Below are positions 8,131 through 60,449 of a DNA stretch of 64,000 bases, one piece after another. Both the position numbers and the translations under genes were made by a program. Each line of letters opens with the position of its first letter. Within the stretch, counting starts at the first letter, position 1. The notes below the pieces were generated by a model that was not told the DNA's origin, made no database searches, and saw only the letters and a list, made by a program, of their open reading frames with translations. Source of the stretch: Melieria omissa (lineage: Eukaryota > Arthropoda > Insecta > Diptera > Ulidiidae); NCBI GenBank assembly GCA_963971225.1, contig OZ020267.1, positions 96,957,648-97,021,647 of the forward strand, given 5' to 3'.

Positions 8131-8875
8131 TTACATGAAAATTTCGATAAAATCCGAAAAGATCAACAGCTTTTTTTCGCTGTCCTTCTCGGCCTTCAAT
8201 TTGTCAAACCATGAAGTGACCTTGGGATCCTTTCCTTTTGCGGTTGCTTCAGACAGATACCCTTCGAAGAGTTCCTCAAAATGGGCAATGAAATCCAAAA
8301 TGCGTTTCCCAAATCCAATTTCGAATTTTTTTAGGCCGCTCTTCTCGAACGCCGTCTTCAGTGTTTCGGTCAGCTTCTCACCCTCGGGCATTTCATCATA
8401 GTCCGACAGGATCATGCCCAATTCGTACATGGATTCTAATATCTTCGGCCATTTCGAGAAATCGTCGGTAATCTTTAAATCTTTGGTCTCTTCGAGGTAG
8501 TTGGATAGTCGCGTTATATTCGACTGCAGCGCTTCGCTTTTGTCGGGCAGCGCATTCAACTCCTTGACTGTCTTCTCGAAGAGCTCGCGGCCCTCTGCAA
8601 CGCTGTTCGTGACAAAGTCGATCAGTCCGACGACCCCAACGATGTACACTATGAAGCCCAAACCCAGCTCCGCTTCGGCGGACGAGTTGCCTTTCACCTT
8701 GTCAAGCGCGGCCGGCTTTTGGGTGGCCGTGATGGCGCTCAACGCGCTCTTTTCCAGCGGCAGCGAGTGCGTGAACTGCGGGGAGCGAAATGATTATGGA
8801 GGAAGTGCTGATGTTTGTTCTTACCTGCAGCAGCAGGCAGACGCTCCAGACGCAAACGAGTGACTTCTTTAGCAT
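8131..8875 (-). CDS. Secreted helical family protein, copy 3 (two exons)
   Basis: Predicted 231-residue secreted protein. Exon 1 is 8875-8825 (17 codons, MLKKSLVCVWSVCLLLQ). The intron is 8824-8776, only 49 bases, GT..AG, phase 0. Exon 2 is 8775-8131, starting FTHSLPLEK. Copies 3, 4 and 5 share a hydrophobic stretch about 60 residues in (IVYIVGVVGLIDFV here), which could be a buried helix or a membrane segment. Core motif VKELNALPDKSEALQSNITRL and C-terminal FEKSGLKKFE and WFDKLKAEK segments are present. The mature part has no cysteine. It is the first unit of a local triplication (copies 3-5). Confidence 0.87.
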
Positions 8876-11021: not shown

Positions 11022-11763
11022 TTACATGATAATATCGAAAAATTCAAAAAAGAGCAACAGCTTTCCTTCGCTGCTCTTCTCGGCCTTGAATCTGTCAAAC
11101 CACGAAGTGAGCTTGGAATCTTTTTCGGTTGCTTCAGACAGATACCCTTCGAAGAGTTCTTCAAAATGGGCAGCAAAATCGAAAATGCGTTTCTTAAATC
11201 CAATTTCGAATTCTTTCAGGCCGCTCTTCTCAAACGCCGTCTTCAGTATTTCGGTGAGCTTCTCACCCTCGGGCATTTTTACATAGTCCGCCATGATCGA
11301 GATCAATTTTGTCATGGATTCGAATATGTTGGGCCATCTCGAAACATTAACGGTACTCTTCAAACATTTGGACTCTTCGAGGTAGTTGGATAGTCGCGTT
11401 ATGTTTGACTGCAGCGCTTCGCTTTTGTCGGGCAGCGCATTCAACTTCTTGACCGTTTTCTCGAAGAGCTCGCGAGAGTCTGCAACGCTCTTCACGAAGA
11501 AGTCGATCAGTCCGGAGGCCCCAACGATGACCAATAGGACGCGCGAACTCAGCTCCTCTTCGGCGGACGAGCTGTCTTCCGCCGAGTTGGCAAGCGCGGC
11601 CGGCTTTTGGGCGGCCGTGATGGCGCTCAACGCGCTCTTTTCCAGCGGCAGCGCGTGCGTGAACTGTGGGGAGCGAAATGATTATGGAGGAAATGCTGAT
11701 GTTTGTTCTTACCTGCAGCAGCAGGCAGACGCTCCAGACGCAAACGAGTGACTTCTTTAACAT
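11022..11763 (-). CDS. Secreted helical family protein, copy 4 (two exons)
   Basis: Predicted 230-residue secreted protein. Exon 1 is 11763-11713 (17 codons, same signal peptide as copy 3). The intron is 11712-11664 (49 bases). Exon 2 is 11663-11022. By eye it differs from copy 5 at roughly 18-20 positions in exon 2, so the two are recent duplicates. It carries the NITR sequon plus a second sequon, NVSR. One cysteine appears in the SKCLK segment, where copy 5 has glycine. The hydrophobic VLLVIVGASGLIDFFV segment is conserved. Function unknown. Confidence 0.87.
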
Positions 11764-16864: not shown

Positions 16865-17606
16865 TTAAAGAACTATATCGAAAAATTCAAAAAAGAGCAA
16901 CAGCTTTTCTTCGCTGTCCTTCTCGGCCTTGAATCTGTCAAACCATGAAGTGAGCTTGGAATCTTTTTCGGTTGCTTCAGACAGATACCCTTCGAAGAGT
17001 TCCTCAAAATGGGTAGTGAAATCGAAAATGCGTTTCTTAAATCCAATATTGAATTCTTTCAGGCCGCTCTTCTCAAACGCCGTCTTCAGTGTTTCGGTGA
17101 GCTTCTCACCCTCGGGCATTACTTCATAGTCCGACATGATCGAAATCAATTTTGTCATGGATTCGAATATGTTTGTCCATCTCGAAACATTGACGGTAAT
17201 CTTCAAACCTTTGGACTCTTCGAGGTAGTTGGATAATCGCGTTATGTTTGACTGCAGCGCTTCGCTTTTGTCGGGCAGCGCATTCAACTCCTTGACCGTC
17301 TTCTCGAAGAGCTCGCGAGAGTCTGCAACGCTCTTCACGAAAAAGTCAATCAGTCCGGAGGTCCCAACGATGACCAATAGGACGCGCGAACTCAGCTCCT
17401 CTTCGGCGGACGAGTTGTCTTCCGCCGAGTTGGCAAGCGCGGCCGGCTTTTGGGTGGCCGTGATGGCGCTCAACGCGCTCTTTTCCAGCGGCAGCGCGTG
17501 CGTGAACTGCGGGGAGCGAAATGATTATGGAGGAATTGCTGATGTTTGTTCTTACCTGCAGCAGCAGGCAGACGCTCCAGACGCAAACGAATGACTTCTT
17601 TAGCAT
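16865..17606 (-). CDS. Secreted helical family protein, copy 5 (two exons)
   Basis: Predicted 230-residue secreted protein. Exon 1 is 17606-17556 (MLKKSFVCVWSVCLLLQ). The intron is 17555-17507 (49 bases, phase 0). Exon 2 is 17506-16865. It is the closest relative of copy 4. Core motif, NITR and NVSR sequons and the hydrophobic segment are intact, and the mature part has no cysteine. A 690-base foldback transposon lies about 150 bases upstream (17755-18444), just beyond the core promoter. Confidence 0.87.
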
Positions 17607-21681: not shown

Positions 21682-22978
21682 ACACTTCGTTCAATAATGT
21701 GTGTGACTAACTAATTAAAACACATTTTTTTGCCAAAATTCGTTTTTATTCATCAACATAGTCCCCTTTTAGGGAGATACAATCATTCCAACGCTTTTCC
21801 AATCTTTCGATACCGCCTTTGTAGAACGATTTTTCTTTGCCTTCAAAATAGGCGTTAGTTTCGGCGATTACTTCATCATTTGAGCCAAATCTCTTACCAC
21901 GGAGCATCTTCTTGAGGTCTGCGAAGAGCCAGTAGTCGCTGGGGGCCAGATCTGGAGAATACGGGGGATGAGGAAGCAATTCGAAGCCCAATTCATGCAT
22001 TTTTGCCATCGTTTTCATCGACTTGTGACACGGTGCATTGTCTTGGTGAAACAACACTTTTTTCTTCTTCATATGGGGCCGCTTAATCGCGATTTCTTCT
22101 TTCAAACGTTCCAACAGCGCTATATAATAGTCGCTATTGATTGTTTTCCCTTTCTCAAGATAGTCGATGAATATTATTCCGTGCACATCCCAAAATACTG
22201 ACGCCATAACCTTGCCAGCCGATGTTTGTGCCTTTGGACGCTTTGGGCGGCTTTCACCGGTTGCATGCCACTCAGCAGACTGCCGATTTGACTCTGGAGT
22301 GAAATGGTGGATCCATGTTTCATCCATTGTGATGTACCGACGCAAAAACTCCGACTTGTTGCGCGTAAACATGTCCAAACAGCTCTTTGAATCATCGATT
22401 CGTTGTTGTTTTTGCTCCGGTGTGAGCAAACGCGGCACCCATTTCAAAAACACCTTTTTCATAACCAAATGTTCGTGTATTATGGTGTGTACACTGCCTG
22501 CTGATATCTTTCGAATGTCAGCAATCTCCCCCACTTTTACTTTACGGTCGGACATAATGATTTTCAGTGTTTTTTCAACGTTTTCCGGAATAACAGCGTC
22601 ATTTGGCCGTCCAGTAGATGGAATGTCATCGGTGTCTGTACGACCACGTTTGAATTCGGCATACCTACCAATAACAAATGGTTCGTTTTGATGGAGCAGA
22701 GTCCGAATAATGTTTTTCAAGCCATTCCTGGCATTGAACAGTATTTTTTTTCATTAAAAAACAATGATAAATCAGCACACGGAATTGCTTTGAATTCATT
22801 TTTTTTGAAAACTCAAAAGTAGTGTCACTTAAAGCACTGTAACTTGTAAACTAATAGTCGGATTGACATATAATAATAACAGACACCCTAAAAAGGTTCA
22901 CAATCTCGAAAAAAAATATTGAGTTAGTTTTAGTGCCGCCATCTATGTGTCAGTCACACACATTATTGAACGAAGTGT
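21682..22978 (-). mobile_element. Near-complete irritans-type mariner (1297 bp)
   Basis: Terminal inverted repeats ACACTTCGTTCAATAATGTG... (about 27 bases without mismatch), flanked by TA at 21680-21681 and 22979-22980. The length is typical for mariner. It contains one transposase gene on the minus strand. The element appears fairly young, since both ends are clean. Confidence 0.92.
21746..22799 (-). pseudogene. mariner transposase with one frameshift
   Basis: DD34D transposase that cuts and reinserts the element at TA. The ATG at 22799-22797 starts MNSKQFRVLIYHCFLM (helix-turn-helix). The frame runs to about 22668, where CCTA (22664-22667, plus strand) looks like a 4-base insertion that shifts the frame just before YAEFKRGRTDTDD. 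From there 22663-21746 is open to the stop. Motifs: MDETWIHH (first D), HQDNAPCHK (second D) and SPDLAPSDYWLF (third D), with C-terminal LEKRWNDCISLKGDY. It is otherwise intact. Confidence 0.88.
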
Positions 22979-25286: not shown

Positions 25287-26052
25287 TCATGTTCGCTCTT
25301 GTCTGCTATTGAAATATTCAGTAAATATTTCCAACTTCTTTTCGTTATTCTTTTCGGCTACGAGTTTGTCAAACCAATCAACCAGCTGGGGATACTTCTC
25401 CACCACATCAGGTGATACACTCAAAAATGTCTTGAAGGCTTCTTCGAAATTGTCGGAAAAGTTGATGAGGCGTTTCTCAAATTCATTTTCAAATTTTTTC
25501 AAACCGGTCTTCTCGAACGCTGTCTTCAGTGTCTCGGTGAGCGTGTCATCGTCGGGCATATCCTCGTAGTCCTGTAGGATTTCTGTCATCTTTAACATGG
25601 CGCTAAATGACTTTGCCACACCAATTAAATTCTCCGTAATTCGCAATTTCTTTGTCTCCTTGACAAAGTCGGCTAAGCGCGTAATGTTCGCTTGCAGTGC
25701 TTCGCTCTTATCCGGTAGCGCGTTCAGCTCCTTGAGCGTATCCTGGAACACTACACGACCCTCCTCAATGGCGTACTTGGAGAGTAGAGTTGATTCAATC
25801 ACTATGGTGATCACCAATTGCTGGCGCGGGGTCACCTCCTTTTCCATGCCCATGTTGCTTTTCACCCTTTCGACCGCGGCGGATCTTTGGGCAACAGCAA
25901 CATCGCTGGAATCGTGCTTCTCCACCGGCATTGTATGCACGAACTGCAAAAAGCGAAATTATTACGTATAAAGGCTGAGTGCAGAGGAGTCCTGATGTTG
26001 TTACCTGCAGCAGGCAGAAACCGAAAATGCAAATCACTGAAATTTTAAGCAT
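25287..26052 (-). CDS. Secreted helical family protein, copy 8 (two exons)
   Basis: Predicted 234-residue secreted protein. Exon 1 is 26052-26005 (MLKISVICIFGFCLLQ). The intron is 26004-25944 (61 bases, phase 0). Exon 2 is 25943-25287, starting FVHTMPVEKHDSSD. The dibasic site found in copies 9 and 11 (EKR) is EKH here. Core LKELNALPDKSEALQANITRL and FEKTGLKKFE are intact, and the mature part has no cysteine. The C terminus is extended by about eight residues (FNSRQERT). An in-frame upstream ATG at 26073 could add seven residues, but the paralogues lack that ATG in frame, so 26052 is preferred. First gene of duplicated block 1. Confidence 0.87.
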
Positions 26053-30137: not shown

Positions 30138-30890
30138 TTAATTACGGAAAAGTTCATTAAAGATTACTACCTTCTTTTCGCTATTCTTTTCGGCTACGAG
30201 TTTGTCAAACCATGAAATTAACTGGGGATGCTTCTCTCCCTCATCAGGTGATACACTCAAAAATTTCTTGAAGGCTTCTTCGAAATTGTCTGAAAAGTTG
30301 ATGATGCGTTTCTCAAATTCATATTCGAATTTTTTCAAACCGGCTTTCTCGAACGCTGTCTTCAGTGTCTCGGTGAGCTTATCATCGTTGGGCATATCCT
30401 CGTAGTCCTGTAGGATTTCTGTCATCTTTAACATGGCGCTAAATGACTTCTCCACACCATTCGTATTCTCCGTAACGTCCAAGTCCTTGGTCTCCTTGAC
30501 AAAGTTGGCTAAGCGCGTCATGTTCACTTGCAGTGCTTCGCTCTTATCCGGCAGCGCGTTCAGCTCCTTGAGCGTATCCTGGAACACTACACGACCCTCC
30601 TCAATGGCGCACTTAGAGAGCAGAGTCGCCTCAATCACTATGGTGATCACCAATTGCTGGCGCGGGGTCACCTCCTGTTCCAAGCCCATGTTGCTTTTCA
30701 CCCTTTCGACCGCGGCGGATCTTTGGGCAACAGCAACATCACTGGACTCGCGCTTCTCCACCGGCAGTGCATGCACGAACTGCAAAAAGCGACAAAATTA
30801 TTACGTAGGAAGGCTGAGTGCGAGAAGAGCTAAAGTTTTTACCTGCAGCAGGCAGAGACTGGAAATGCAAATCACTGCAATATTGAGCAT
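30138..30890 (-). CDS. Secreted helical family protein, copy 9 (two exons)
   Basis: Predicted 229-residue secreted protein. Exon 1 is 30890-30843 (MLNIAVICISSLCLLQ). The intron is 30842-30780 (63 bases, phase 0). Exon 2 is 30779-30138, starting FVHALPVEKRESSD. The signal peptide probably ends at VHA. The EKR site just after it could be processed to give a new N terminus (inference). Core LKELNALPDKSEALQVNMTRL is intact, and there is one cysteine (SKCAIEEG). It is the second gene of duplicated block 1 and its closest relative is copy 11. The large nested transposon stack starts about 300 bases upstream of its ATG. Confidence 0.88.
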
Positions 30891-32160: not shown

Positions 32161-34326
32161 CGACGGCTCTTAATCATTTATATTAACTCCGATGCGAGTT
32201 CTTGTCAGCAGTTGTTTCTATTGTTGTCTCATTCTTACACATGCGTGTATAAGCAATTAATGTTTCTATGGTTGTCAAATGGTTTGTTTCAGTTTAAATG
32301 AAAGACAAATTGCAGCGATATGTTGTCTCATGGGCCCAATTTAATGCAAGTGTATTGGTAAATTCAAAAAATGTTGCGAATGTAGTGGAGTTTCGGTCAG
32401 TCCCCTGCCAGACGCGTGTGATCGAAACTCCAACACATTTACAAAAATTCTCGCTGAAACTAACACATAAACATTTACAAAGGAAATTTTTAAGTATGTT
32501 CCATGCAAGCGGGAAAAAGAAGCTTCAGTACACAAAATTTCCCTGTATGAGAAAACGAGATGACACTATATGTACATACGGCACGTGCCGTTATGACGCT
32601 TGGGCAAATTGTGAAAAGTGAAATAAAAGTGTGTCGAAAACAAGTCAGCGGTGGAAAATTTAATAAAAGATAAGTACAATTGTTTATTATTTTTGTAATA
32701 AATATGTTAACTAAATTTTATTAAAAATAGATGAGAAGCGTATCAAAAGAATTGTTTGCCTAATGTTAGCGTTTTTTTCATTGAATCTTTGCAGATTGTG
32801 TTCAGCGCTAGCGCTCCTAACCTCAAAAATGTCGTGGACTGAGGGTCAATTTCATTTCCTTACATTTGCAAAATTTTTAATAATTTAATTACTTTGGTTC
32901 GTACTATAACTGTGTAAATTAATGATTTTTGATTAATAAAAAACCTTTTTTATAAAAATAAACACATGAAATAATAAAATGCCAAGGCTTTTTATTTTCA
33001 ATCAGCTGTGATAGGTTTATGCGTCAAATGTGATGCCTTTTGATATCACTGATGATAGAAATTTTATCAGCAGTGACTAATCACACGTGATTGGGATTTG
33101 ATCATTGCTGATTAGAGTGAGCGAGACAACTATATGTTGGACCACGTTTTAAATCGCCTGTGTACGAAGGTGATGCAGAATCACATGGACACAAAAATAC
33201 CCATCACATTTTTCACACTGCTAGTGGAAAAATGATGGAGATTGTGATCGAAATTTCATCACATGTGATTGTCATATGATTGATCAAATGATGGTCACTG
33301 TCCTTGCAGGGGTCGCGTCTTGTAGGTAATTCAGTTTTGCTCACACGCACACACATACAGACCGGTGTTTTTTTTTTTTTTTTTGCAGTAGGTGGAAAAG
33401 CATTGAAAGCCGGAGTGCGAGACTTTCACCCGCTAAAAACCACCTGTACACTATCCCGGGGACCCCACGGAACCACGATGAAGTATTACTTCGTGGGGGG
33501 AGAAAAAGACCTAGCTGTCCCTAATCCATTGGCGACGCCGCTGCTCCGCCATTATGCTCGCATGTGACCCACAATATTGTCAGGTGTCAGCTCTTCACCC
33601 ACTATTCGGCAGGCAGCCTGTCTTGCCCTGGCGTGTTGCCGGCAATCGAAAAAGGCATGTTCGGCGTCCTCTGGCACTGCACAGAGCTGGCAAAAGGGAT
33701 CGCCGTCGTGACCAAATCTATGAAGATAGGCCCTGAAGCAGCCATGCCCGCTCAGAAGCTGCGTGATGTAGAAGTTGACTTCTCCGTGCAACCTTCCACA
33801 CCAGCTGGCGATGTCAGGAATGAGCCTATGCGTCCATCGGCCGTTCGGTGCCTCGTTCCAGCGGGTCTGCCAAAGCCGCACGCTAGCTAATCTACTTCGC
33901 TGCCTCCTTGTGCTACGATCATTCTCGTCGTCATCTCGCTGCCTAGCTATTGCTGCTTCCTGCGCTAGAATGTCGATCGGGCACAGACCTACGATGACCA
34001 GCGCTGCATCCTCTGATGTTGTGCAAAAGGCACAGCAGACTCTCAAGGCACACAACCGGTACACGGATCGTATGCCTCGGCCATATGACGCGACCTTTAG
34101 TGCATCCGCCCATACTGACGCTGCATAGAGCACAATGGATTTAACAACCCCTGCGAGCAGTTGTCTTCGTCGTTGCCTCGGGCCTCTCGTGTTCAGCATT
34201 ATGTGAGCTAACGCTGCGCTAGCCTTTGCCGCCTTTTTCCATGCATACTCTAAATGCTCCTTGTAACAAAGACGGCGATCTATTATCACGCCTAAGTATT
34301 TTAACGCAGGCGTAGACGCAACGTCG

Positions 34327-34354
34327 CACAGTGTCGCGATTGTGGCCAAAAATG
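34327..34354 (+). other. Transib left end: 12-spacer RSS-like signal
   Basis: Heptamer CACAGTG (34327-34333), spacer TCGCGATTGTGG (12 bases, 34334-34345), nonamer-like CCAAAAATG (34346-34354). The V(D)J consensus is CACAGTG and ACAAAAACC, so the heptamer is exact and nonamer positions 2-7 match. Confidence 0.85.
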
Positions 34355-34393
34355 CAAAAAGTCTATGTTGCAAACGTGATATTTTTTTACTTA

Positions 34394-35110
34394 CCAGGTA
34401 TGCTGGTATACTTACCTATGAAACCGGTAACGACATCTAGCGGTAAATAGCCGAATATTTATAAACTTCGGAACCGTACCAAATGTCGTGTTTACTTCTT
34501 CTGTCATATGTCAACAATATTCAGTTCACAATTTGTCAAGTTTCATCCAACAACGCATTGTTTGACGCTCCGGAAAATGTCGGATTACGTGCCTACAAAT
34601 TACGATTTGCGGACACAGTTAATTTTGTGTTACCATTTGAAGAAAAAAACATTCTAAAACCTGTTGAAACGGTTAACGGTGAACGTTACCAACAACAATT
34701 GGCCGATTTGAACCGTGCTATACGCCAAAAACGCCCAGAATATGAAGCCAGGCAACACAAAGTGATTTTCCTCGATGACAACGCACCACCACACCGCACT
34801 AGAGCCACCAAAGAATTGGTTGCATCGTACAACTGGGAAGCTCTTGCTCATGCGGCTTACTCACCAGACTTGGCGCCTTCGGATTATCACATGTTCGCAT
34901 CGATGGGCCACGCATTAACGGAACAGCGCTTCAATTCTCACGCAGAAGCCAAAAAATGGATCGATGATTGGTTTCAGGCAAAAGACGAAACATTTTTTTG
35001 GCGAGGCATCCATAAATTGCCTGAGAGATGGGAAAAATGTGTAGCTAGCGATGGCCATTACTTTGAAGAATAAAATTGTAATCATTTCCTCACAATAAAC
35101 GTGTTTTTTC
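34394..35110 (+). mobile_element. Mos1-like (mauritiana) mariner remnant
   Basis: Left end CCAGGTATGCTGG follows TA (34392-34393). No matching right end is found. The open frame 34483-35073 has an unrelated first 55 codons, then the mariner catalytic half: ILKPVETVNGERY, FLDDNAPPHR (second D), SPDLAPSDYHMFASMGHAL (third D) and LPERWEKCVASDGHYFEE. The DNA-binding half is deleted. Inserted in the 5' part of the Transib. Confidence 0.7.
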
Positions 35111-35434
35111 AAAACTAATATATGTTGAGTATATGTTGAGATAATACTCCCAATAAGACAAATCCAAAATATTTCTTAAAACAAATTATAAATGGAATCA
35201 GGAGCCATCCACAAAGTTGGGTCTTTTGTTCGAACACATTTTCGCCAGAGCAACGAAAACGATTTTTGTGATAAATGTAAGTACAATTTTAAGCTTACTA
35301 TGTATGGATATAAATTACATACGTAAGAAAAATATAGAGTTCGGGCGATTAGGCACCACTTTTTTTGTTTTGTTTTGATCAACATATGCGAAATTACGGT
35401 ATTTTAAAAAACACGCTCTGTATCACGAAAAGTG

Positions 35435-37450
35435 TGTGGGGGATGGGACAAACATCGCGACGAACGTTCACGCATTCGCGTGCGCACGCTCGTTCACACA
35501 TTCGTGTCATGGGCTATCGGACAGGCAGTTCGGTTTTCGAAAGGCACGGTCGACGATTGATGCAATCGCTACGGTAGTACACACGGCAAAAAACGCAATC
35601 CAGGGGAAGAGATGGAAGGGCGGCACGAAAAAGTACTGTGCAATAATAACGCTAGACGTAAAGAATGCGTTCAACTCAGCAGGATGGGTCCATATCCTGA
35701 GAGCGGTCCGAAAACTGGAAGCACCGGACTACCTGCTGGCTATCTTAAGCAGCTACCTTGCGGACAGAGTACTGCAATATGACAGCGATGAAGGCCCCAA
35801 ACAATATGTAGTAACCTCAGGTGTTCCACAAGGGTCAGTCCTCGGACCAGTTCTGTGGAACATTATGTATAACGAAGTGCTAAACCTCCCCGTTCCAGAA
35901 GGCGTGGTAGTGGTGGGATTCGCGGACGACATCGCGATAGCAGTGGTAGCGAAACAGCTAGCGGACGTGGAGCAGAAATCAAATGCCACAATAGCGGTCG
36001 TCCGAGCGTGGCTTCAGTCAGTGGGCCTACAACTAGCAGAAGAAAAAACTGAAGCGGTACTGGTGAGCAGCCGAAAGAAAAGCGAGGTAATGAGAATCGA
36101 GGTTGGCGCGAATATCATTACCTCCAGTCGATCCTTAAAGTACTTAGGCGTGGTCATCGATGACAGGCTCAGTTTCCGAAAACAGGCTGAATACGCCTGC
36201 TGTAAAGCGTCCAAAACCTATACCAGCCTATCACGGATGCTGCCCAACATCGGGGGCCCAAAAGCCAGTAGGCGTGTGCTACTTGCCAGTGTGATATCGT
36301 CCTCGCTACTATATGCAGCTCCAATCTGGGCCGAGTCCCTGCAAATCAAGGCGTATAAGCGACAGTATGAGCGCGTCTACCGGCTTGCAGCACTGCGCGT
36401 GATAAGCGCTTTTAGAACGGTGTCAGACGAAGCAGCTTGTGTCATCTCCGGGATGTTGCCAATCGACATCAGGGCGGACGAGACGCGGCGTATATATGTC
36501 CTTAAGGGAACGCTCTCGAAAGAAGAAGGAGCGCGCATCGAAAGAGCAACCTCCATGAGGCAGTGGCAGGCGCGATGGGACCGCTCGGGCAAAAGCCGGT
36601 GGACACATACGCTCATCCCATGCATAGACAAGTGGACAAGTAGAAGGCATGGCGAGGTAAACTTTCAATTAACGCAGTTCCTTACCGGCCACGGTGGCTA
36701 CAGAAGCTACCTACAACGCTTCGGCCATGACGACAATGCCAATTGTCCATCCTGCGACAAGCCAGAAAGCCCTGAGCACACTTTATTCGAATGCCCACGA
36801 TTCGAGGCCGTTCGATCCAGACTAAACACGGCGACCCAGAAAATCTTGAACCCACGCAACATAATTGACGCGATGTTGGAATCAGCGGAAGCCTGGGACG
36901 AAATATGTGGAGGCATTACTTTAATGCAAGCGGAACTGCGAAGAGCAGAATGGGCCAGAAGCAGCCAACGCACAACAGAGCCTGGAGAGATAGGCTAAAC
37001 TTAACCCCCCTCTGCGATGCGATACTTAACGGTAATTCCGCAGAGGGAATGAAGGGTTAACAGGGGGTGGTTTTAGTCGGTAAGAATCCGGCATGCTGGT
37101 GGGTTGCCCCAGTATCTTTCGAAGATTTCCACCTCCTGCGCGGGAAAAAAAAAAAAAACATTCGTGTGTGCACACCATTCGCTCGCTGCCGCACGCACGC
37201 CGACGCAACATCGCAACGAACGTTCACGCATTCGCGTGCACACGCTCGTTCACGCATTCGTGTGTGCACACCATTCGCTCGTTGCCGTACGCACGCCGAC
37301 TCACGAGGACGCGTTCAAACGGGAACGGGACTGGGATCATTCGATCGACACGCGTCAACCGCGCAGCAAGCGCACCGTTACTTTCTTTCTATTTTTGTGT
37401 TAATTTAATTGTAATTTTATTTTTAAATAAATGGGAATTGCCATCCCATA
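35435..37450 (+). repeat. 5' LTR, split by a LINE
   Basis: LTR halves 35435-35507 and 37168-37450, plus a 10-base duplication, total 356 bases. It starts TGTGGGGGATGG and ends CCATCCCATA. It contains repeated CGTTCACGCATTCG-type units and an AATAAA near the end. Confidence 0.9.
35508..37157 (+). mobile_element. R1-like LINE inserted in the 5' LTR (1650 bp, 5' truncated)
   Basis: Target duplication ACATTCGTGT (35498-35507, 37158-37167) and a poly(A) tail ending at 37157. The ORF2 fragment is open from about 35514 to 36998 (about 495 codons). It starts within the reverse transcriptase (RQFGFRKARSTIDAI), with SGVPQGSVLGP, FADDIA (about 35918) and a CCHC-type finger CPSCDKPESPEHTLFEC (about 36750). 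A 3' UTR with an inverted CCCTCTGCG/CGCAGAGGG-type pair follows. Related to, but distinct from, the LINE at 33368-46102. Confidence 0.88.
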
Positions 37451-37484
37451 ACTGGTGACCCCGCACGTTACACGAACGATAACA

Positions 37485-38378
37485 ATGAATAACAACGCTC
37501 CCAGCGACGGGGGCGACGATAGCAGCCAAGGAAGCCAGGTCAACGCAGTTTTCGGAAAACTACAGTTTCCTCGGCTAAGCTCGAAACACGGCGTCGAGAC
37601 ATGGTTCATCAAAGTGGACGCATGGTTCGAGTTAAACGGTTTTGGCATTCGAAAGGAGCGCGAGAAATACACGGCACTCATCGCGCACGCGGATGAATAC
37701 GTACTTGATCAAGTACACAGTCTGGTGACGACTGTACCTGAGGTGGCCCCGTACACGACAATCAAGAGCGCAATTATCGAAAGATTCCGCGAACCGACAA
37801 TGATTCGCCTGGACAAACTCACGTCCGGCATTCAACTCGGCGACGGCAAGCCGAGCCACTTACTCAATCAATTGCGCCGCACAAATGCAACGACAGACGA
37901 TTCCATCGTGCGTAACTTTTGGATGAAAAGATTGCCGAAACAGGTTCGCGCCGTCATCGCCGGCATGCTCGAATCCACGCCGGGCACCACACTCGACACT
38001 CTCGCCAACACCGCCGACGCAGTGCTCGACGCCATGAACGATTCAAGTTCGCCGGGCACATCAATGGCCGACACCACAGCCATCAACGCAATCAGCGCTC
38101 CAGGCGATCGTGTCGGAATACTCGAACAGTGTGTCGGAAAGCACGAGGCGCTGCTACGGGAGATCAACGCGAAACTCTCGAAACTCCTCGCGGACAATCG
38201 TAGTCATCAGTATGATCGTTCAAGCAGCGTATTCCGGCGAAGCCCAACTCCGCATCGCGCAACAAGTCCCCTACAAAACTCACAGACTTGCTGGTTTCAT
38301 CGAACTCATGGCACTCAGGCTCGCCAATGTCGGAAGCCATGCGACTTTTCACAACCAGACAATACGACAAAAAACTAA
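37485..38378 (+). CDS. Gag of the CsRn1-type element
   Basis: 297-residue capsid/nucleocapsid polyprotein of the LTR element. The ATG at 37485 follows the primer site; the frame opens earlier but without ATG. The capsid region is residues about 20-190 ([14 protein letters not shown] onward). Near the C terminus, [18 protein letters not shown] fits the C-x2-H-x9-C-x3-C finger of the CsRn1 clade. It overlaps the Pol frame by about 90 bases, so Pol probably needs a -1 frameshift. No internal stop. Described only as a resident element. Confidence 0.85.
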
Positions 38379-41300
38379 ATGCAGCCGAAACACTTCAGCT
38401 CGGTAGTTCCGGCAGCATTTCATCACCATCGAGCAGCCAATCAACCTCCAATCGACACGACGAATTAGAGGTAAACTCCGTCCAAATACCACGAACTAAC
38501 AGACTTTTTGTTCCAGATATCAAATCTGGTCAGAAATTTTTGATCGATACCGGCGCAGAAGTATCGGTCCTTCCGTCAACGCGACTACATCGAATGAGCA
38601 ACACGAACGAAAATCCGCTTTTCGCAGCGAATGGCACTATCATCAAAACGTATGGTGTCACTCGCCTCACTCTCGACTTGGGACTACGCCGTCCTTTCAC
38701 ATGGAATTTTGTAATCGCCGATATCAAGCACCCAATTATTGGCAGCGACTTCCTCCGGCATTTCAATTTGCTCATCGACATCAACAGCTGCAAGCTCATC
38801 GATGCTCTCACGACACTGTCACGACCTGGTATTTGCAGTCTCGAGGCGTCGACAAACATCAAAACCTACAACGATTCATCGGAGTTCGCAGATTTGCTGC
38901 GAGAATTTCATGAAATCACGCAACTCAACGCCACGGCGCCTGCATCGACACCCACAGGCGTTACCCATTGCATCGAAACCAAGGGCGCCCCTGTTTTCGC
39001 ACGGCCCAGGCGCCTCACACCCGACAAATACAAAGCTGCTCGAGACGAATTCGAATTCCTCATCAAGCTCGGGATTTGTCGTCCATCGAATAGCTCGTAC
39101 GCTTCACCATTGCATCTGGTGCGGAAATCCAATGGCGACTGGCGACCGTGCGGCGACTATCGCTCCCTCAACGCCCAAACGGTGCCGGATCGTTACCCGT
39201 TGCCGCACATTCCGGACTTTACTCATTTCTTACACGGAAAGAAGGTATTTAGCAAGATTGATCTCAACCGCGCGTATCACCAAATTCCAATAGAGCCAAA
39301 CGACATTCCAAAAACAGCAATCACAACCCCGTTTGGCCTGTTCGAATTTACTCATATGACGTTTGGATTGTGTAATGCAGCGCAAACCTTCCAACGCTAC
39401 ATGCATTCAGTGTTTCGAGGATTCGATTTCGTATTCGTCTACGTTGACGACATATGCATCGCTTCCGACGACGCCGAGCAACATAAGTCGCATTTGCGGC
39501 AGGTTTTCGAGCGTCTACGGAAGTTTCATCTCACAATCAACCCGACCAAATGCACTTTCGCGAAATCAACAATCGAGTTCCTCGGGCATCTCGTCACACC
39601 CGACGGCATCAAGCCGTCGCCAGCCAAAGTTCAAGCGATCATCGATTTCCCATTGCCTACAGTCGCCAAGCAACTGCGTCGATTTTTGGCAATGATCAAC
39701 TTTTACCGACGTTTTTTGCCGCATGCAGTTGAACACCAAGCGCCACTGGTCCAATTGATTCCTGGTAACAAGAAGAACGATTCCACACCAATAAATTGGA
39801 CTGACGACACACGTAAGCACTTCAACGAATATAAACAGCAATTAGCAGACGCTGCACTTCTTGTGCACCCTGCACCGAATGCACAAATCTCACTCAACAC
39901 TGACGCCAGCGACACCGCCGTTGGCGCCGTGATACACCAAATCATCGACAGCGAGTTTCAACCGATTGGATTCTTCAGCCTTAAACTCACCGAAGCGCAA
40001 CGTAGGTACAGCACGTATGATAGGGAACTGCTTGCGGTTTACCTTACCATCAGGCATTTCCGTTGCATGCTCGAGGGTAGGGTTTTCGAGGTACGTACGG
40101 ATCACAAACCATTAGTCTACGCTTTTAGGCAAAAACCAGACAAAGCTTCACCGAGGCAAGTTCGCCACTTGGACTACATAGGTCAGTTTACAACAAACAT
40201 CATACACATAGCGGGTGCTGAAAATACGCCGGCGGACACACTCTCGCGCATTGCAGCGATCGCATCGACAACCATCGACTATGACCACATCGCCGCAGCA
40301 CAGTCAAGTTGTCCAGAATTGAAGAAGTTCCTCGAAGACAACAACACATCGTTGAAGCTCAAACAAATCGACATACCTAACTCGACAGCTGCAATTTATT
40401 GTGATGTTTCGACTAATAAGGCACACCCATTCATTCCTCGTTCCCACCGGGGGGCGATCATCACCAAATTGCACAGCATCTCGCACGGTGGAGTACGAGC
40501 GACGACTGACCTCATCAAATCTCGTTTCGTTTGGCCAGAAATGGGCAAAGAAATTGCCGACGTCGTACGCAAATGCATCAATTGCCAAAAATCTAAGATT
40601 AGCCGACACGTACACGCGCCTCTCCAAACATTTTCGCTTCCATCACAAAGGTTCGAGCATATTAACATCGATCTCATCGGCCCGTTGCCGCTGTCAAACG
40701 AATATCAATACTGTCTGACCATCATTGATCGATACACTCGATGGCCAGAAGCCGTTCCACTCAAAGACATATCAGCGGAGACCGTGGCCCGAGAGCTCGT
40801 GAACATTTGGATTTCACGTTTCGGCATTCCAGCTCGCATCACGACCGACCAGGGCAGACAATTCCAGTCGCATCTTTTCCGAGAATTGTCTTGCACGCTG
40901 GGTATCAACCATCTTCGCACCACGGCATATCACCCGCAGGCCAACGGACTCATCGAGCGGTGGCATCGCACACTCAAAGCAGCAATCATGTGCCACGGCC
41001 AGTACGACTGGCCAAATCGTTTGCCAATCATTCTACTGGGGTTACGCTCAGCATTCAAATCGGACATCGAAACATCGGCAGCTCAACTCGTTTATGGTAC
41101 TACATTGCGGCTTCCAGGAGAGTTCTTCAACGACAGCAGGATACCTCAACCGCAATCGGAATTTGTCAAGCAGCTAACAGAAGCGATGCACGAGATTCGA
41201 CCCACGCAAACAGCAAACCACGACAAATCAAAACCGTTTATCTTCAAGAACCTCGACGAGGCAACGCACGTGTTTGTTCGGAACGACCAGCTGCGTCCAG

Positions 41301-41557
41301 CATTGCAACCACCGTACGACGGCCCGTTCCAAGTCGTCTCTAGACACGGAAAATTTTTTACAATTCAGATGGGACGCCACCAGTCGAACATCTCGATCGA
41401 TCGGCTTAAACCGGCATACATCGAGACTCCGCACGCCGACGAACCATCCACCACAACTCGGCAGCCATTGGCACCATCGCTGTCCACGCAGGCAGCGTCA
41501 ACGACAACGGCTCGTTCTGGTCGCCACATCAAACTTCCCGTCCGTTTCACGACGTGA
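38288..41557 (+). CDS. Pol of the CsRn1-type element
   Basis: Open frame of about 1089 codons. Order of domains: aspartic protease ([13 protein letters not shown], about 38541), reverse transcriptase ([13 protein letters not shown] at about 39440), RNase H ([12 protein letters not shown], about 39895), integrase zinc region (about 40440-40590) and integrase catalytic core (D at about 40673, TTDQGRQFQ, and E in NGLIERWHR at about 40955), then a short C-terminal domain. No stop or frame break. The frame is -1 relative to Gag, in the 38288-38378 overlap. No envelope gene. Confidence 0.9.
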
Positions 41558-41573
41558 AGTCTGGGGGGAGCAC

Positions 41574-41929
41574 TGTGGGGGATGGGACAAACATCGCGAC
41601 GAACGTTCACGCATTCGCGTGCGCACGCTCGTTCACACATTCGTGTGTGCACACCATTCGCTCGCTGCCGCACGCACGCCGACGCAACATCGCAACGAAC
41701 GTTCACGCATTCGCGTGCACACGCTCGTTCACGCATTCGTGTGTGCACACCATTCGCTCGTTGCCGTACGCACGCCGACTCACGAGGACGCGTTCAAACG
41801 GGAACGGGACTGGGATCATTCGATCGACACGCGTCAACCGCGCAGCAAGCGCACCGTTACTTTCTTTCTATTTTTGTGTTAATTTAATTGTAATTTTATT
41901 TTTAAATAAATGGGAATTGCCATCCCATA
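41574..41929 (+). repeat. 3' LTR
   Basis: 356 bases, uninterrupted, matching the 5' LTR base for base as far as I can read. Internal repeats (ACGTTCACGCATTCG, CACACCATTCGCTCG) occur two to three times. Confidence 0.92.
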
Positions 41930-44222
41930 AGTGTTTCTCAGTCGCTAACTTTGGGAGACGGGGAAAAAAAGTCTCAATGCATCTCTTGAGTGATAAGTGA
42001 AAAACAACGGCACAAGAACCGCCTACCAAAGAAAAAAAATTAGCTGTTTCGACCTACGTCGCCACCTACAAATTAACTTTTTGTAATGGCACATACAGTC
42101 AAAATTTGTAATTTGTTTGAACTATGGCTTACGGTGAACGAGAAAAGCAGCGTCGAAGTAGCTGCTGCAATGGTGACCTATATGAAGGGCAAGGTTGGGA
42201 CTCATTTAGTAACGGAAATGCAAGAGAATAAGCTGAAGTCGTTGGAATGAAAATTCCGGAGGTTGTGGAAAGCTTCCCACTGGAATAGAGGCAGGTTTGA
42301 TGAAAAGCATTCGAATTGGCTGAATTGTTGTTTTAAGTTAGACAGCGAAGAACTTTGTGTAAGTGGTCTTATTTCTGTAAAGTTTTAGCTTGAATAAAAT
42401 AATGTACTTATTGTACATATTTTAGAAAGCCGACTCTAGCACGCATGGACAACTGCAAGAGTATGATGATGACGTGAGTTTCCAGAAAACTTAGTGCAAC
42501 AATTGAAACATGTACACACATATTTTTATATACTGTTCTTTAGCAACCTAGCACGAGTAAAGGCAGACCAACTTTGGGGTATGAAGAATCATCGGACCGC
42601 AGTAAACGGAGAAAAGTTGAGGACCTAATTACCAGCACATCATCAGATAAAATCAAACGAGCTGCGAATGTACTAGAAAAACGGGAAACTGGGACTGATG
42701 CAAAGTGCATATCTACTATGCAAGCCTTGGGGCTTTATTACGATTTACAAATGTCTGTGCGAAAATACAATACCTTGCGGGCAGTCGTGAATGCTATCCA
42801 TCCCAACTGCTTTCCGAGCTACTACGCCTTAAAGCACGCGATGGATGAACTATTGCCACAACCGATCACACTGTCGGAAATATCAGCAGAAGTGCCACTG
42901 CAAAGCTTACTCAATAGAACAGCTCAAAGTCTTTTACAATTAGCTGATATTCGATCGAATTTGTCAGTAATACTTGAATGCAAGTAGGAATTTGATGGTA
43001 GTTCAGGCCACAGCATTTACAAGCAAACATTTTCCAATGAAGGCGACACGGATGAGTTCCTTTTCGTCACCGCACTAGTTCCTCTTAAAATGTATAACAT
43101 CGATAATGACAATCAAATTTGGGTTAATAAAACCCCGTCATCCCCACATTTATGCCGCCCTATTAAATTTCTTTTTACGAAGGAAAGCCCGCAGTTAATC
43201 CGCGCGACCGAAAGAGACTTAGCGATTCAAATAGATAGGCTTTTAGAATATAATATTCAAATACATGACTTTGCTGTTAAAGTTACATATAAAATGCATT
43301 TAACAATGATAGATGGGAGGTAACAAATGTGCTATCTGAAAATAAGTCTGCTAGCAGCTGTTATCTTTGCGGAAGTGGTAGTAGCGAAATGAATTCGTTT
43401 CATGCGATTGAGTATTTAATCCAGGAAGATCGTTCGAAATACGGTCTTTCCACTTTACATGCGTGGATAAAAGTTTTTGAATGTTTATTACATATTTCGT
43501 ATAGGATTCCAGTAAAGTGTTGGCGGGTTTATGGGATGAAAATAAAAGAATTGTTGATCAAAATAAAAAAAGGATTTGCAAAGAATTCAGAAAAGAAATG
43601 GGGTTAGTTATTGATAAAGTTAGAACTGGCTACGGCACATCAAATGATGGAAACACTGCTAGACGTTTTTTTTAACAATGTTAATGTCTCCGCAAAAATT
43701 ACCAACATTGACATAAACTTGATTACAAACTTTTCCATTATATTGCGAACCTTGTCCAGTGGAAGATCAATTAATAACAATACCTTCGACGTACTCTTAA
43801 ACAATATATTTGAAATATACATGAATAATTATTCCTGGTATAACATGCGTGTAACTGTACACAAGATATTAGTACATGGAATAGATATTATTAAATTCTT
43901 CACCATACCAATAGGAATGCTTTCGGAGGACGCACTAGAAGCACGTCATAAGGAATTCCGAAAGTTTCGATTTAGCAGTACCAGAAAAAACTCAAGGGAA
44001 ACATCAAATAGGGATCTACTTTCCGTCATGTTGTTATCTTCAGAGCCGAAAATTTCGGCTTATAGGAAACTTCAACATAAGAGAAATACGGATTTTAGGG
44101 AACTTTTGAAATATATTCTACTTGAGGAAATACAAATGGAAGAAAATTTTTTAGATATTGATTTAGATAATTTAATTTCGAACGATTTATTGTCCGATTA
44201 CGAGAGTGAAATTGAACAATAA

Positions 44223-44661
44223 TATGTAAATTTTGTTTGTAAATATCGAATGAAGTTTGTTAAACAATAGAACTAATAAATCGAATTTGTCTTATGGATT
44301 TTGATTGAGAACTTTGTTCATATCAATGGAGGTAGACATAATGCCACGCCTCCTCTTACAGTTTTAGAACGCTTACCAACACATCGTAGAACGAGTATCG
44401 TAAACAGCCTTCTACAGTTTAATTTTAGTAAAATACGATTAGTTTTGAAATTGGTGTGAGCTTTTATGTCATTATTTTAAGCTCATGTACAAAATGTCAT
44501 AATTCTATCACTAATATGAAGCAAGTTATATCAATATTACATTTCATTTCGTATGAGGGTGGGCGTGGCAATGGTCCAATTTTAATGATTTTTTGCAAAT
44601 TTCTTAATTTCGACCACAAAAACGATCTCACCAAGTTTCATCGAGATAGAACAACGTTAAG
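44223..44661. other. 3' part of the Transib
   Basis: Non-coding. It contains the GGGCGTGGCA-type word seen in several other intergenic stretches of this window (12690, 27270, 55120). Confidence 0.4.
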
Positions 44662-44700
44662 TATTTTTGGCCACGGCTTATATGGGATCGCGACACTGTG
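44662..44700 (-). other. Transib right end: 23-spacer RSS-like signal
   Basis: Read on the minus strand: heptamer CACAGTG (44700-44694), a 23-base spacer (44693-44671), nonamer-like CCAAAAATA (44670-44662). The first seven spacer bases (TCGCGAT) and last four (GTGG) equal those of the left end. The right spacer therefore looks like the left one with 11 bases added or removed. Confidence 0.85.
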
Positions 44701-46199
44701 CGTCGTGGTTGCCAACCCTCACGACTGCCACCTCAACAACTTTTCTGCTGCTAATGAGCACGGCTTCCGTCTTCTCCTCGGCCAAGCTAAGGCCGGCGGC
44801 TGAAAGCCAGCTTCGGATTTGCGCCACCGAATTGTTTGCGACTTCTTCAGCCTTCCGCACGATCTTGGCGACTATGACCAGTGCCACGTCGTCGGCAAAG
44901 CCAATTTTAGTGGCTTCGGGTGGCAGTGGCAGACATTATACGCCGTCGCGTATAATATTCCACATAATTGGCCAGAGCACAGAGCCCTGTGGCACTCCTC
45001 CTGTGATCGCGTATTGTCGCAAGCCGTCCTCAGCTTCGTACTGCAGCCTCCTATTATTAAAATAGCTGGCTATAATGCCTCTTAGGTATAGCGGTACATT
45101 ATAGCTCTCGAGGTTTTGCAGAATAATCGCCCAATTCGCCGAGTTAAACGCATTTTTGATGTCTAGCGTAACCATAAGACAATATTCTTTTGTTCCGAAC
45201 CTCCAGCGCTTTCCTGCGATGGCGTTCTTTGCGATTCGTTGGACCTTTTCAACCGCGTCTGTTGTCGATCGGGCTTTTCTGAAACCAAACTGGTTTTCAG
45301 CGAGCCCCCGCCTTCGGCTATCGCCGCGTCTAAACGATTGGCAATTATGCGTTCCAGTACTTTGCCCGCGGTGTCCACCATGCACAGGGGCCTGTAAGCT
45401 GATGGGTCGTCTGGCGGTTTGTTGCCTTTTGGGAGAAGAACTAGCCTCTGGACTTTCCACAGGTCCAGAAAAACGCCTTCGCGGAGGCACGCATTGTACA
45501 GAGATACAAATATGTCCGTCCGTTGCGTGATCGCCACCTTTAGCGCTAGATTTGGAAAACCGTCCGGACCCGGGGCTTTGTTGTTTCCAACCTTTTCCAT
45601 GGCGCTCAGGACCTCTTCGCACGTCACTGGGTTTGGTGGCGCGCAGGTAAGCTTTGGCTACTCTGGGAAAAGGGCTTTTACAATTCTGCATAGCTGCTCA
45701 GGGCAAGTTGGAGTGGGCTGTCTGAAACCGTTTAGCTTCTTCATTACTATTTTGAAGGCGGCGCCCCACGGGTTGTTGTCGGCGTCGTCACACAACTCGA
45801 GGGAGTAGCGCCTTTTGCTGTCGCAAAAGGCGTTTTTTACACACTTCCTTTTGTGCTTATACGCTGCTCTGCAACTAAGAAAATTTACACCACCTCTGGC
45901 TCTTTGGTACAGCCTTCTTGCCCTGTTACATTCGGCGCGTAGCCTCGAAATGGACTCATTCCACCAATAGACAGGTTTATGGTGGTTATTTGGCGCGCTT
46001 CTAGCCATCGACGCATCGCTTGCTCTGCTGATGTTGCCCATTACCTGATCTGCCATGCTCGCCGCGGGCCCCTTCACTACAGCTTCGGCCCACATCATCA
46101 TCCAGACCGGTGTGTATTTGTGTGTGTGTCTAAAAGAAATTACAAACATTCGTAAATTTGAATTCATCAAATTTCATGCCAGCAGGGCACTACCAATTG

Positions 46200-53360: not shown

Positions 53361-54096
53361 TTAAGCGAAAAGTGCACTAATGATTTCCACCTTCTTTTTG
53401 CTATTCTTTTCGGCTACGAGTTTGTCAAACCATGCAATTAGCTGGGGATTCTTCTCCACCTCATCAGGTGATGCACTCAAAAATGTCTTGAAGCCTGCTT
53501 CGAAATTGTCAGAAAAGTTGATGAGGCGTTTCTCAAATTCATCTTCGAATTTTTTCAAACCGGCCTTCTCGAACGTTGTCTTCAGTGTCTCGGTGAGCTT
53601 GTCATCGTCGGGCATATCCTCGTAGTCCTGTAGAATTTCTGTCATCTTTAACATGGCGCTAAATGACTTCTTCGCATCATTGGAATCCCTCTTAATGTCC
53701 AAGTCTTTGACAAAGTCGGCTAAGCGCGTAATGTTCGCTTGCAGTGCTTCGCTCTTATCCGGCAGCGCGTTCAGCTCCTTGACCGTATCCTGGAACAGTA
53801 CACGACCCTCTTCGAAGGCGTACTTGGAGAGCAGAGTCACTTGGACCACTACGGTAAGCAGCAGCTGATTGCGCGGAGTCAACTCCTCTTTGGAAGACGG
53901 GCTGTCCGCCCTGTCTACCGTGGCGGATCTTTGGGCAACAGCAACATCGCTGGAATCGTGCTTCTCCACCGGCATTGCATGCACGAACTGCAAAAAGCGA
54001 AATTATTACGTAGGAAGGCTGAGTGCAGAGGAGTCCTGATGTTGTTACCTGCAGCAGGCAGAGACTGGAAATGCAAAACACTGCAATCTTAAGCAT
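53361..54096 (-). CDS. Secreted helical family protein, copy 10 (two exons)
   Basis: Predicted 224-residue secreted protein. Exon 1 is 54096-54049 (MLKIAVFCISSLCLLQ). The intron is 54048-53988 (61 bases). Exon 2 is 53987-53361, starting FVHAMPVEKHDSSD. Core VKELNALPDKSEALQANITRL is intact and the mature part has no cysteine. A short deletion relative to copies 8 and 9 removes a few residues around DFVKDLDIK. It is the block 2 counterpart of copy 8, sharing the EKHDSS N terminus and its intergenic flank. Confidence 0.88.
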
Positions 54097-59705: not shown

Positions 59706-60449
59706 TTACTTACGGAAAAGTTCATTAAAGATTACAACCTTCTTTTCGCTACTCTTTTCGGCTACGAGATTGTCAAACCATGAAATTAACTGGGGATGCT
59801 TCTCCCCCTCGTCAGGTGATACACTCAAATATATCTTGAAGGCTTCTTCGAAACTGTCAGAAAAGCTGATGATGCGTTTCTCAAATTCATCTTCGAATTT
59901 TTTCAAACCGGCTTTCTCGAACGCAGTCTTCAGTGTCTCGGTGAGTTTTTCATCGTTGGACATATCCTCGTAGTCCTGTAGGATTTCTGTCATCTTTAAC
60001 ATGGTGCTAAATGACTTCTCCACACCACTCCGATCCTCCGCAAAATCCAAGTCCTTGGTCTCTTTGACAAAGTCGGATAAGCGCGTCATGTTCACTTTCA
60101 GTGCTTCGCTCTTATCCGGCAGTGCGTTCAGCTCCTTGAGCGTATCCTGGAACACTACACGACCCTCCTCAATGGCGTACTTTGACAGCAGAGTCGCTTC
60201 AATCACTATGGTGATCACCATTTGCTGGTGTGGGGTCACCTCCTTTTCGAAGGACAAGTTGCTTTTTACCCTGTCGACCGCGGCGGATCTTTGGGCAACA
60301 GCAACATCACTGGACTCGCGCTTCTCCACCGGAAGTGCATGCACGAACTGCAAAAATTATTACGTAGGAAGGCTGAGTGCGAGAAGAGCTAAAGTTTTTA
60401 CCTGCAGCAGGCAGAGACTGGAAATGCAAATCACTGCAATCTTGAGCAT
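59706..60449 (-). CDS. Secreted helical family protein, copy 11 (two exons)
   Basis: Predicted 229-residue secreted protein. Exon 1 is 60449-60402 (MLKIAVICISSLCLLQ). The intron is 60401-60348 (54 bases). Exon 2 is 60347-59706, starting FVHALPVEKRESSD. Core with NMTRL sequon is intact and the mature part has no cysteine. It is the block 2 counterpart of copy 9. A MITE has inserted only about 20 bases beyond its stop codon (MITE end at 59683), so its 3' UTR and poly(A) site now lie within transposon sequence. Confidence 0.88.

What the first reader, a model, noticed from the sequence alone, without database searches (positions are those of the whole stretch)
34327..44700. Insect Transib transposon with an exact CACAGTG heptamer at both ends and 12/23 spacers
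Counted directly: the left end is CACAGTG, 12 bases, CCAAAAATG. The right end, read inward, is CACAGTG, 23 bases, CCAAAAATA. A CGTCG duplication flanks both. The RAG recombinase joins one 12- and one 23-spacer signal, with heptamer CACAGTG and nonamer ACAAAAACC (established). RAG1 is thought to descend from Transib. Similarity of Transib ends to RSSs is known, but an element with an exact heptamer, matching nonamers and one end of each spacer class is notable. The shared outer seven and inner four spacer bases suggest one class arose from the other by an 11-base indel, about one helical turn.
Basis: partly seen in the sequence, partly recalled or inferred. Interest (0 to 1): 0.92.

Follow-up and report, generated by a model that had tools for sequence, protein, structure and literature searches.

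The report
Insect transposon with antibody-gene-style 12/23 ends
A jumping gene in this insect genome carries one end of each of the two types (12- and 23-base spacing) that vertebrate immune cells use to cut and join antibody genes, and dozens of its relatives in the same genome keep that pairing; this end design was already known in a few insect transposons, so it is a clear new example rather than a new kind.

Summary
Without it a reverse-transcriptase frame is open across the site. Of 49 copies with both ends located, 47 are 12/23, two have a damaged 12-end, none is symmetric; 18 further ends stayed unpaired. Consensus 12-ends of two subfamilies agree over 27 bp (heptamer, 12, CCAAAAAT), then diverge. 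The broken transposase is Transib (HzTransib, E 1e-99), with GRP where RAG1 has its nonamer-binding domain. Corrections: about 3.9 kb are Transib (with a mariner-like piece), the rest nested retroelements; the nonamer match is 6 of 9. 12/23 Transib ends were reported in 2005 (Drosophila Transib5, Anopheles Transib2/N1-N3; through PMC8355894). New member of a known kind; whether the pairing is a functional rule is untested.

The parts
34322..34326 (.). Left target-site duplication CGTCG
34327..34333 (+). Heptamer CACAGTG of the 12-type end
34334..34345 (+). 12-bp spacer TCGCGATTGTGG
   Evidence: family consensus TCGCGAGTGTGG
34346..34354 (+). Nonamer-like block CCAAAAATG (6 of 9 to ACAAAAACC)
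34483..35073 (+). Mariner-like transposase fragment inside the Transib
   Evidence: PF01359, E 2.2e-4, 21.5 bits, below the family cut-off of 24; ends not found
35435..41928 (+). Gypsy-like LTR retrotransposon nested in the Transib, 5-bp duplication AAGTG; class judged from the order of its domains (recalled)
   Evidence: (RVT_1, RNase H, integrase)
35508..37157 (+). R1-like non-LTR retrotransposon with an A-tail, nested in the 5' LTR, 10-bp duplication; boundaries approximate
42086..42475 (+). Probable N-terminal exons of the Transib transposase (broken)
   Evidence: by eye; inferred, not tested
42544..44219 (+). Broken Transib transposase (one in-frame stop, several frameshifts): GRP region, both D motifs and the E motif present in pieces
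44662..44670 (-). Nonamer-like block CCAAAAATA of the 23-type end
44671..44693 (-). 23-bp spacer TCGCGATCCCATATAAGCCGTGG (read inward)
44694..44700 (-). Heptamer CACAGTG of the 23-type end
44701..44705 (.). Right target-site duplication CGTCG
33552..34326 (-). Target: 3' part of a non-LTR reverse-transcriptase ORF; continues at 44706
   Evidence: 334-codon frame open across the joined flanks
44706..45691 (-). Target: upstream part of the same reverse-transcriptase gene; it has an in-frame stop of its own

Best explanation
The window holds a decayed autonomous relic of a Transib DNA transposon family whose two ends are asymmetric: one heptamer-12-CCAAAAAT end and one heptamer-23-CCAAAAAT end. 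Shown: the end structure, the 5-bp mostly CGNCG target duplications, the precise empty site, the RAG1/HzTransib-type transposase, and the 12/23 pairing in 47 of 49 copies with both ends located. Near-identical copies at different sites suggest recent movement. Inferred: a Transib transposase dimer synapses one 12-end with one 23-end, cuts next to CAC by nick-and-hairpin chemistry as HzTransib and RAG do, and grips the A-rich block of each end with the GRP region that stands where RAG1 has its nonamer-binding domain; non-autonomous copies move with a transposase supplied in trans, whose source was not found here.
Confidence: 0.82

Rival explanations
1. The family has asymmetric ends, but the 11-bp offset has no function: the transposase reads only the outermost bases, and the 12/23 spacing is frozen history, the resemblance to RSS spacers being chance.
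For: Invertebrate RAGL enzymes are thought to rely mainly on the outermost ~15-17 bp and to be rather insensitive to asymmetry (PMC7204232 passages). Copies inherit both ends together, so absence of 12/12 and 23/23 is expected anyway.
Against: CCAAAAAT of the 12-end lies at positions 20-27, beyond 15-17 bp, yet is identical between subfamily consensuses that diverge right after it; spacers are exactly 12 and 23, the RSS values, at which 6-of-9 nonamers occur at about 2% of CAC sites each.
Confidence: 0.35
2. The effective nonamer of the short end is the second A-run (spacer about 20-22), so the ends are really near-symmetric ~20/23, as in many Transib families.
For: Window left end has GCAAAAAGT (6 of 9) at spacer 20; subfamily A has ACAAAAAGT (7 of 9); AAAA at positions 31-34 is kept in 33 of 34 rows, the odd row being the window element entered a second time from its other end. 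Symmetric 20-22 bp spacers are known in Transib (PMC8355894 legend).
Against: The second run is outside the 27 bp shared by the subfamily consensuses and differs between them (ACAAAAAGT against GGTAAAAAT); it is not the sequence shared with the 23-end.
Confidence: 0.12
3. The window copy's left end is a private 11-bp deletion of a 23/23 family.
For: The first genome listing showed almost only 23-type ends, because the pattern demanded GAT after the outer block.
Against: Partners of those ends are 12-type in 42 of 44 located pairs, the other two being damaged 12-ends; 54 of 100 listed ends are 12-type.
Confidence: 0.01

Closest known systems
Transib families with 12/23 ends: Transib5 (D. melanogaster), Transib2, N1, N2, N3 (An. 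gambiae); Kapitonov and Jurka 2005, not held, seen only through passages of PMC8355894
   Same: Asymmetric 12 or 23 (+/-1) spacers between heptamer and nonamer-like block, RAG1-like transposase
   Different: Here the asymmetry is counted copy by copy
HzTransib (Helicoverpa zea; PDB 6pqn and kin)
   Same: Transposase homologue over residues 56-533 of the query (E 9.9e-100); 5-bp duplication (PMC1852546 passage)
   Different: Its ends are called symmetric with little nonamer similarity (PMC8289069 passage); the aligned chain begins after the GRP region
RAG1/RAG2 with 12RSS and 23RSS
   Same: Heptamer identical; spacers 12 and 23; A-rich core at the same distance
   Different: Nonamer 6 of 9; no RAG2 domain in the seven ORFs scanned; a transposon, not an antigen-receptor locus
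RAGL transposons (ProtoRAG 27/31, PMC8355894 passage; Aureococcus RAGL 4/13 between longer blocks, PMC9435367 passage)
   Same: Bipartite asymmetric ends, 5-bp duplications
   Different: Carry RAG2L; other spacer lengths

Membership tests
Transib superfamily | RAG1-core/HzTransib-type transposase | tested here: met
   6pqn E 9.9e-100; profile also matches RAG1 and RAG1L chains
Transib superfamily | D, D, E catalytic residues | tested here: met
   All three align with HzTransib (numbers D126, D225, E436 from a PMC6941560 passage), though in different frames of a broken gene
Transib superfamily | CAC-starting heptamer-like termini | tested here: met
   CACAGTG at both ends
Transib superfamily | 5-bp GC-rich target-site duplication | tested here: met
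   CGTCG here; CGNCG in 27 of 36 exact pairs
Transib superfamily | Transposase is the only gene (no RAG2) | tested here: inconclusive
   No Kelch/RAG2 domain in the seven ORFs scanned; the element is decayed
Asymmetric 12/23 Transib (Transib5/Transib2_AG type) | One end 12, the other 23, as a family trait | tested here: met
   47 of 49 copies with both ends located; 2 damaged; 0 symmetric; 18 of 67 anchors unpaired
RAG recombination signal pair (12RSS/23RSS) | Heptamer CACAGTG | tested here: met
RAG recombination signal pair (12RSS/23RSS) | Nonamer ACAAAAACC | tested here: inconclusive
   6 of 9 at both ends, core CAAAAA kept
RAG recombination signal pair (12RSS/23RSS) | Cut only as a 12 + 23 pair | not testable with these tools
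   needs a cleavage or transposition assay
RAGL transposon | RAG1L and RAG2L gene pair | tested here: inconclusive
   no RAG2-like domain in the seven ORFs scanned

The most novel reading that the evidence does not exclude
A RAG2-free insect Transib obeys a true 12/23 rule: its transposase, through a GRP-type nonamer-binding region, requires one 27-bp heptamer-12-CCAAAAAT end and one heptamer-23-CCAAAAAT end. If so, the 12/23 restriction of V(D)J recombination predates RAG2 and came with the transposon ends.
Probability: 0.3. Interest if true: 0.85.

Novelty: new member of a known kind. Interest (0 to 1): 0.5.

Why it matters
Where the 12/23 rule came from is open: most Transib families are said to have symmetric ends, HzTransib among them, and RAGL transposons have other spacers (passages). 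A family with exact heptamers, exact 12 and 23 spacers, over 300 matching ends and some near-identical copies gives well-defined natural 12- and 23-end substrates to ask whether a transposase without RAG2 prefers the mixed pair.

Tried and rejected
My first reading of the genome listing was that the family is 23/23 and the window's left end a private 11-bp deletion (notebook). It was wrong: the pattern required GAT, which 12-ends lack except the window's; partners are 12-type.

A convergent 12+12 pair 7 kb apart was checked: flanks CGTCA and CGGTG do not match, so these are ends of two elements; neither has a partner in about 1.5 kb. At L012 a 12-type end lies 1.2 kb from the 23-end but the flanks differ (CTCCC, ACACA), so it was counted as unpaired. 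Two 12-ends, L050 and L051, showed no family partner in their 3-kb loci.

Looking for relatives in other collections gave nothing: plasmids, viral contigs by pattern and by protein, genome contigs by protein. These hold prokaryote, plasmid or viral records, so the misses say little. Pfam named none of the three transposase pieces scanned. Structure matches covered the GRP part only in poor superpositions, so its fold stays untested. Five longer 12/23 copies (L072-L076, 2.0-3.2 kb) gave no tblastn match to five transposase queries; of the loci present, only the window and L014 did, L014 with another Transib transposase (37-39% identity). L049-L071 were not scanned for transposase.

Full report
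Observation. Both ends are as described: CGTCG, CACAGTG, TCGCGATTGTGG (12), CCAAAAATG on the left; CGTCG, CACAGTG, TCGCGATCCCATATAAGCCGTGG (23), CCAAAAATA on the right, read inward. The repeat finder gives outer 20-nt arms at 95% complementarity. CACAGTG by itself is common in the window (8 found, 5.67 expected). The shared 12-mer displaced by 11 bp is not: 14 of 20,000 random pairs of 46-mers share 12 bases or more. The nonamer match is 6 of 9 at +12 and +23; 40 and 37 of 1738 CAC sites in the window reach that. Other 6-of-9 blocks stand at +20 on the left and at +10 and +25 on the right.

Anatomy. Joining the flanks without the element and one CGTCG gives a 334-codon reverse-transcriptase frame open across the junction on the minus strand, so this is one clean insertion into a non-LTR retrotransposon, itself broken further upstream. 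The 10,374 bp contain a Gypsy-like LTR element (35435-41928) with an AAGTG duplication, an R1-like element with an A-tail and a 10-bp duplication inside its 5' LTR and a mariner-like fragment. Without the Gypsy-like element and one duplication 3875 bp remain, the mariner-like fragment included.

Transposase. ORF pieces at 42544-44219 carry one in-frame stop and several frameshifts. Read through as a search query they match HzTransib (6pqn, E 9.9e-100, query residues 56-533); D, D and E line up. A profile of 14 relatives also finds amphioxus RAG1L (E 3.2e-8) and RAG1 chains (best E 1.8e-6, whole chain; single stretches are weaker). 715 relatives passed among 7987 scored candidates; 120 are listed, the best three 54-56% identical, the named ones insects such as Rhagoletis and Stomoxys. 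GRP and two predicted helices precede the region that aligns with the HzTransib chain; GRP occurs upstream of the first D motif in 88 of the 120 listed. An equivalent of RAG1's nonamer-binding domain with GRP has already been reported in Transibs (PMC9435367 passage). The fold of the window's 147-aa piece matches RAG1 and HzTransib from model residue about 54 on (Foldseek's best E is 2.8e-3); the GRP part is covered only with rmsd 10-17.

Copies in the host genome. The genome (G000, 490 Mb, 164 contigs) was searched by pattern. CACAGTGTCGCGAT, gap 0-30, CCAAAAAT: 149 places, control 0. CACAGTGTCGCGA, gap 0-30, GGCCAAAAAT: 315 places, control 0. The 100 listed of these, in contig order on C1 and C2, are 54 with spacer 12 and 46 with spacer 23; the other 215 were not seen. 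Among the 100, 30 convergent pairs lie within 12 kb: 29 are 12 with 23; one is 12 with 12, and its flanks do not match. In the list one end has a spacer of 27 (L028).

Pairs. From fetched stretches, 66 anchor ends with CACAGTGTCGCGAT were taken, the window element counted once. 44 have a partner end: 42 are 23/12 (34 with exact duplication, 6 with one mismatch, 2 with two); 2 have a damaged 12-end with exact duplication (L021, L067). 22 had no partner, 18 of these in stretches of about 1.5 kb and 4 in stretches of 4.4-5 kb. One search then fetched five longer pairs (L072-L076): four resolve anchors of that list and one is new; all are 12/23, four with exact duplications and one with one mismatch. 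Together 47 of 49 located pairs are 12/23, 2 damaged, 0 symmetric; 18 of 67 anchors remain unpaired. With an exact duplication a partner needed only a heptamer with at most one mismatch; with one or two mismatches in the duplication it also needed TCGCGA with at most two. Neither depends on the partner's spacer.

Age and targets. 25 non-autonomous copies were aligned: two subfamilies of about 1.19 and 1.36 kb with some shorter or longer forms; nearest-neighbour identity, gaps ignored, 93-99.9%. L038 and L040 are 99.9% alike with different duplications (CGGCA, CGAGC), which suggests recent movement. Duplications are CGNCG in 27 of 36 exact pairs.

What is conserved. Consensuses of subfamilies A (15 copies) and B (10, one too short to use): 12-end identical over 27 of 27 bp, then 52% over columns 28-60; 23-end 88-97% over the first 300 columns. 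The window's 12-end differs at one of the 27 and follows A further in (88% over columns 28-60). The 27 bp are heptamer, 12 and CCAAAAAT. This favours CCAAAAAT at 12, not the second A-run, as the functional block, but is not a test of function. Against it, the second run scores 7 of 9 in A. The 12 and 23 spacers share TCGCGA outside and (Y)GTGG inside; an 11-bp indel explains the difference, direction unknown.

Mechanism. Shown: insertion with 5-bp duplication, asymmetric ends, RAG1-type transposase. From published work: HzTransib cuts like RAG, leaving a hairpin on the flank and a blunt signal end (PMC6941560 passage). Inferred: synapsis of one 12-end and one 23-end, with A-block contacts by the GRP region. 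The absence of symmetric copies fits a pairing rule but also plain inheritance.

Known work. PMC8355894 (passages) states that Transib5 of D. melanogaster and Transib2, N1, N2, N3 of An. gambiae have 12/23 ends, taken from its reference 8, Kapitonov and Jurka 2005, which is not held. PMC9435367 (passages): Subgroup I Transibs all asymmetric, Subgroup II both kinds. PMC8289069 (passages): most Transib families symmetric. PMC6941560 (passages): some Transib ends have heptamers and nonamers identical to the RAG consensus, with spacers of various lengths. PMC7204232, PMC4411706, PMC1852546: passages. Literature searches. I therefore file this as a new member of a known kind, unusually well documented by its own copies.

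Limits. The whole-genome protein search did not complete, so whether an intact transposase exists is unknown.

Noticed in passing
window minus strand: 1245-1880, 8131-8742, 11022-11630, 16865-17473, 25287-25949, 30138-30785, 53361-53993, 59706-60353: At least eight ORFs of ~200-220 aa in one orientation share a motif like LNALPxKSxAL (by eye). One member found no relative at E 1e-3 among 301 candidates of the protein search; none of five ORFs scanned, four of them listed here, passed a Pfam cut-off. Looks like a lineage-specific expanded gene family.
   Followed up: partly
window 37039-37140 (+): Rfam R2_retro_el (R2 retrotransposon RNA element; 54.2 bits, gathering 38) in the 3' part of an element whose reverse transcriptase is R1-like; an R2-type RNA element there is unexpected.
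   Followed up: partly
L014 (G000:C1:80517000-80526000), ends at 1485 and 6599, minus strand: A second Transib family: ends CACAGTGGCTCAATTTGTC..., transposase 37-39% identical to the relatives used as queries. After 23 bases follows CAAAATTAA (for the count); its other end was not found.
   Followed up: no
window 21746-22720 (-): Uninterrupted 324-codon ORF that reads like a mariner transposase (by eye), so a possibly young copy.
   Followed up: no
G000:C1:45428979-45429016 (-): A 23-spaced end with a deviating spacer (TCGCGAGTCCATAGTAGCGAGGG), perhaps a related subfamily or a hybrid of the two end types.
   Followed up: no
L004 at 1550 and L011 at 4289, minus strand (same place): CACAGTG occurs twice, 12 bp apart, at a 23-type end: a shifted or doubled terminus.
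   Followed up: no
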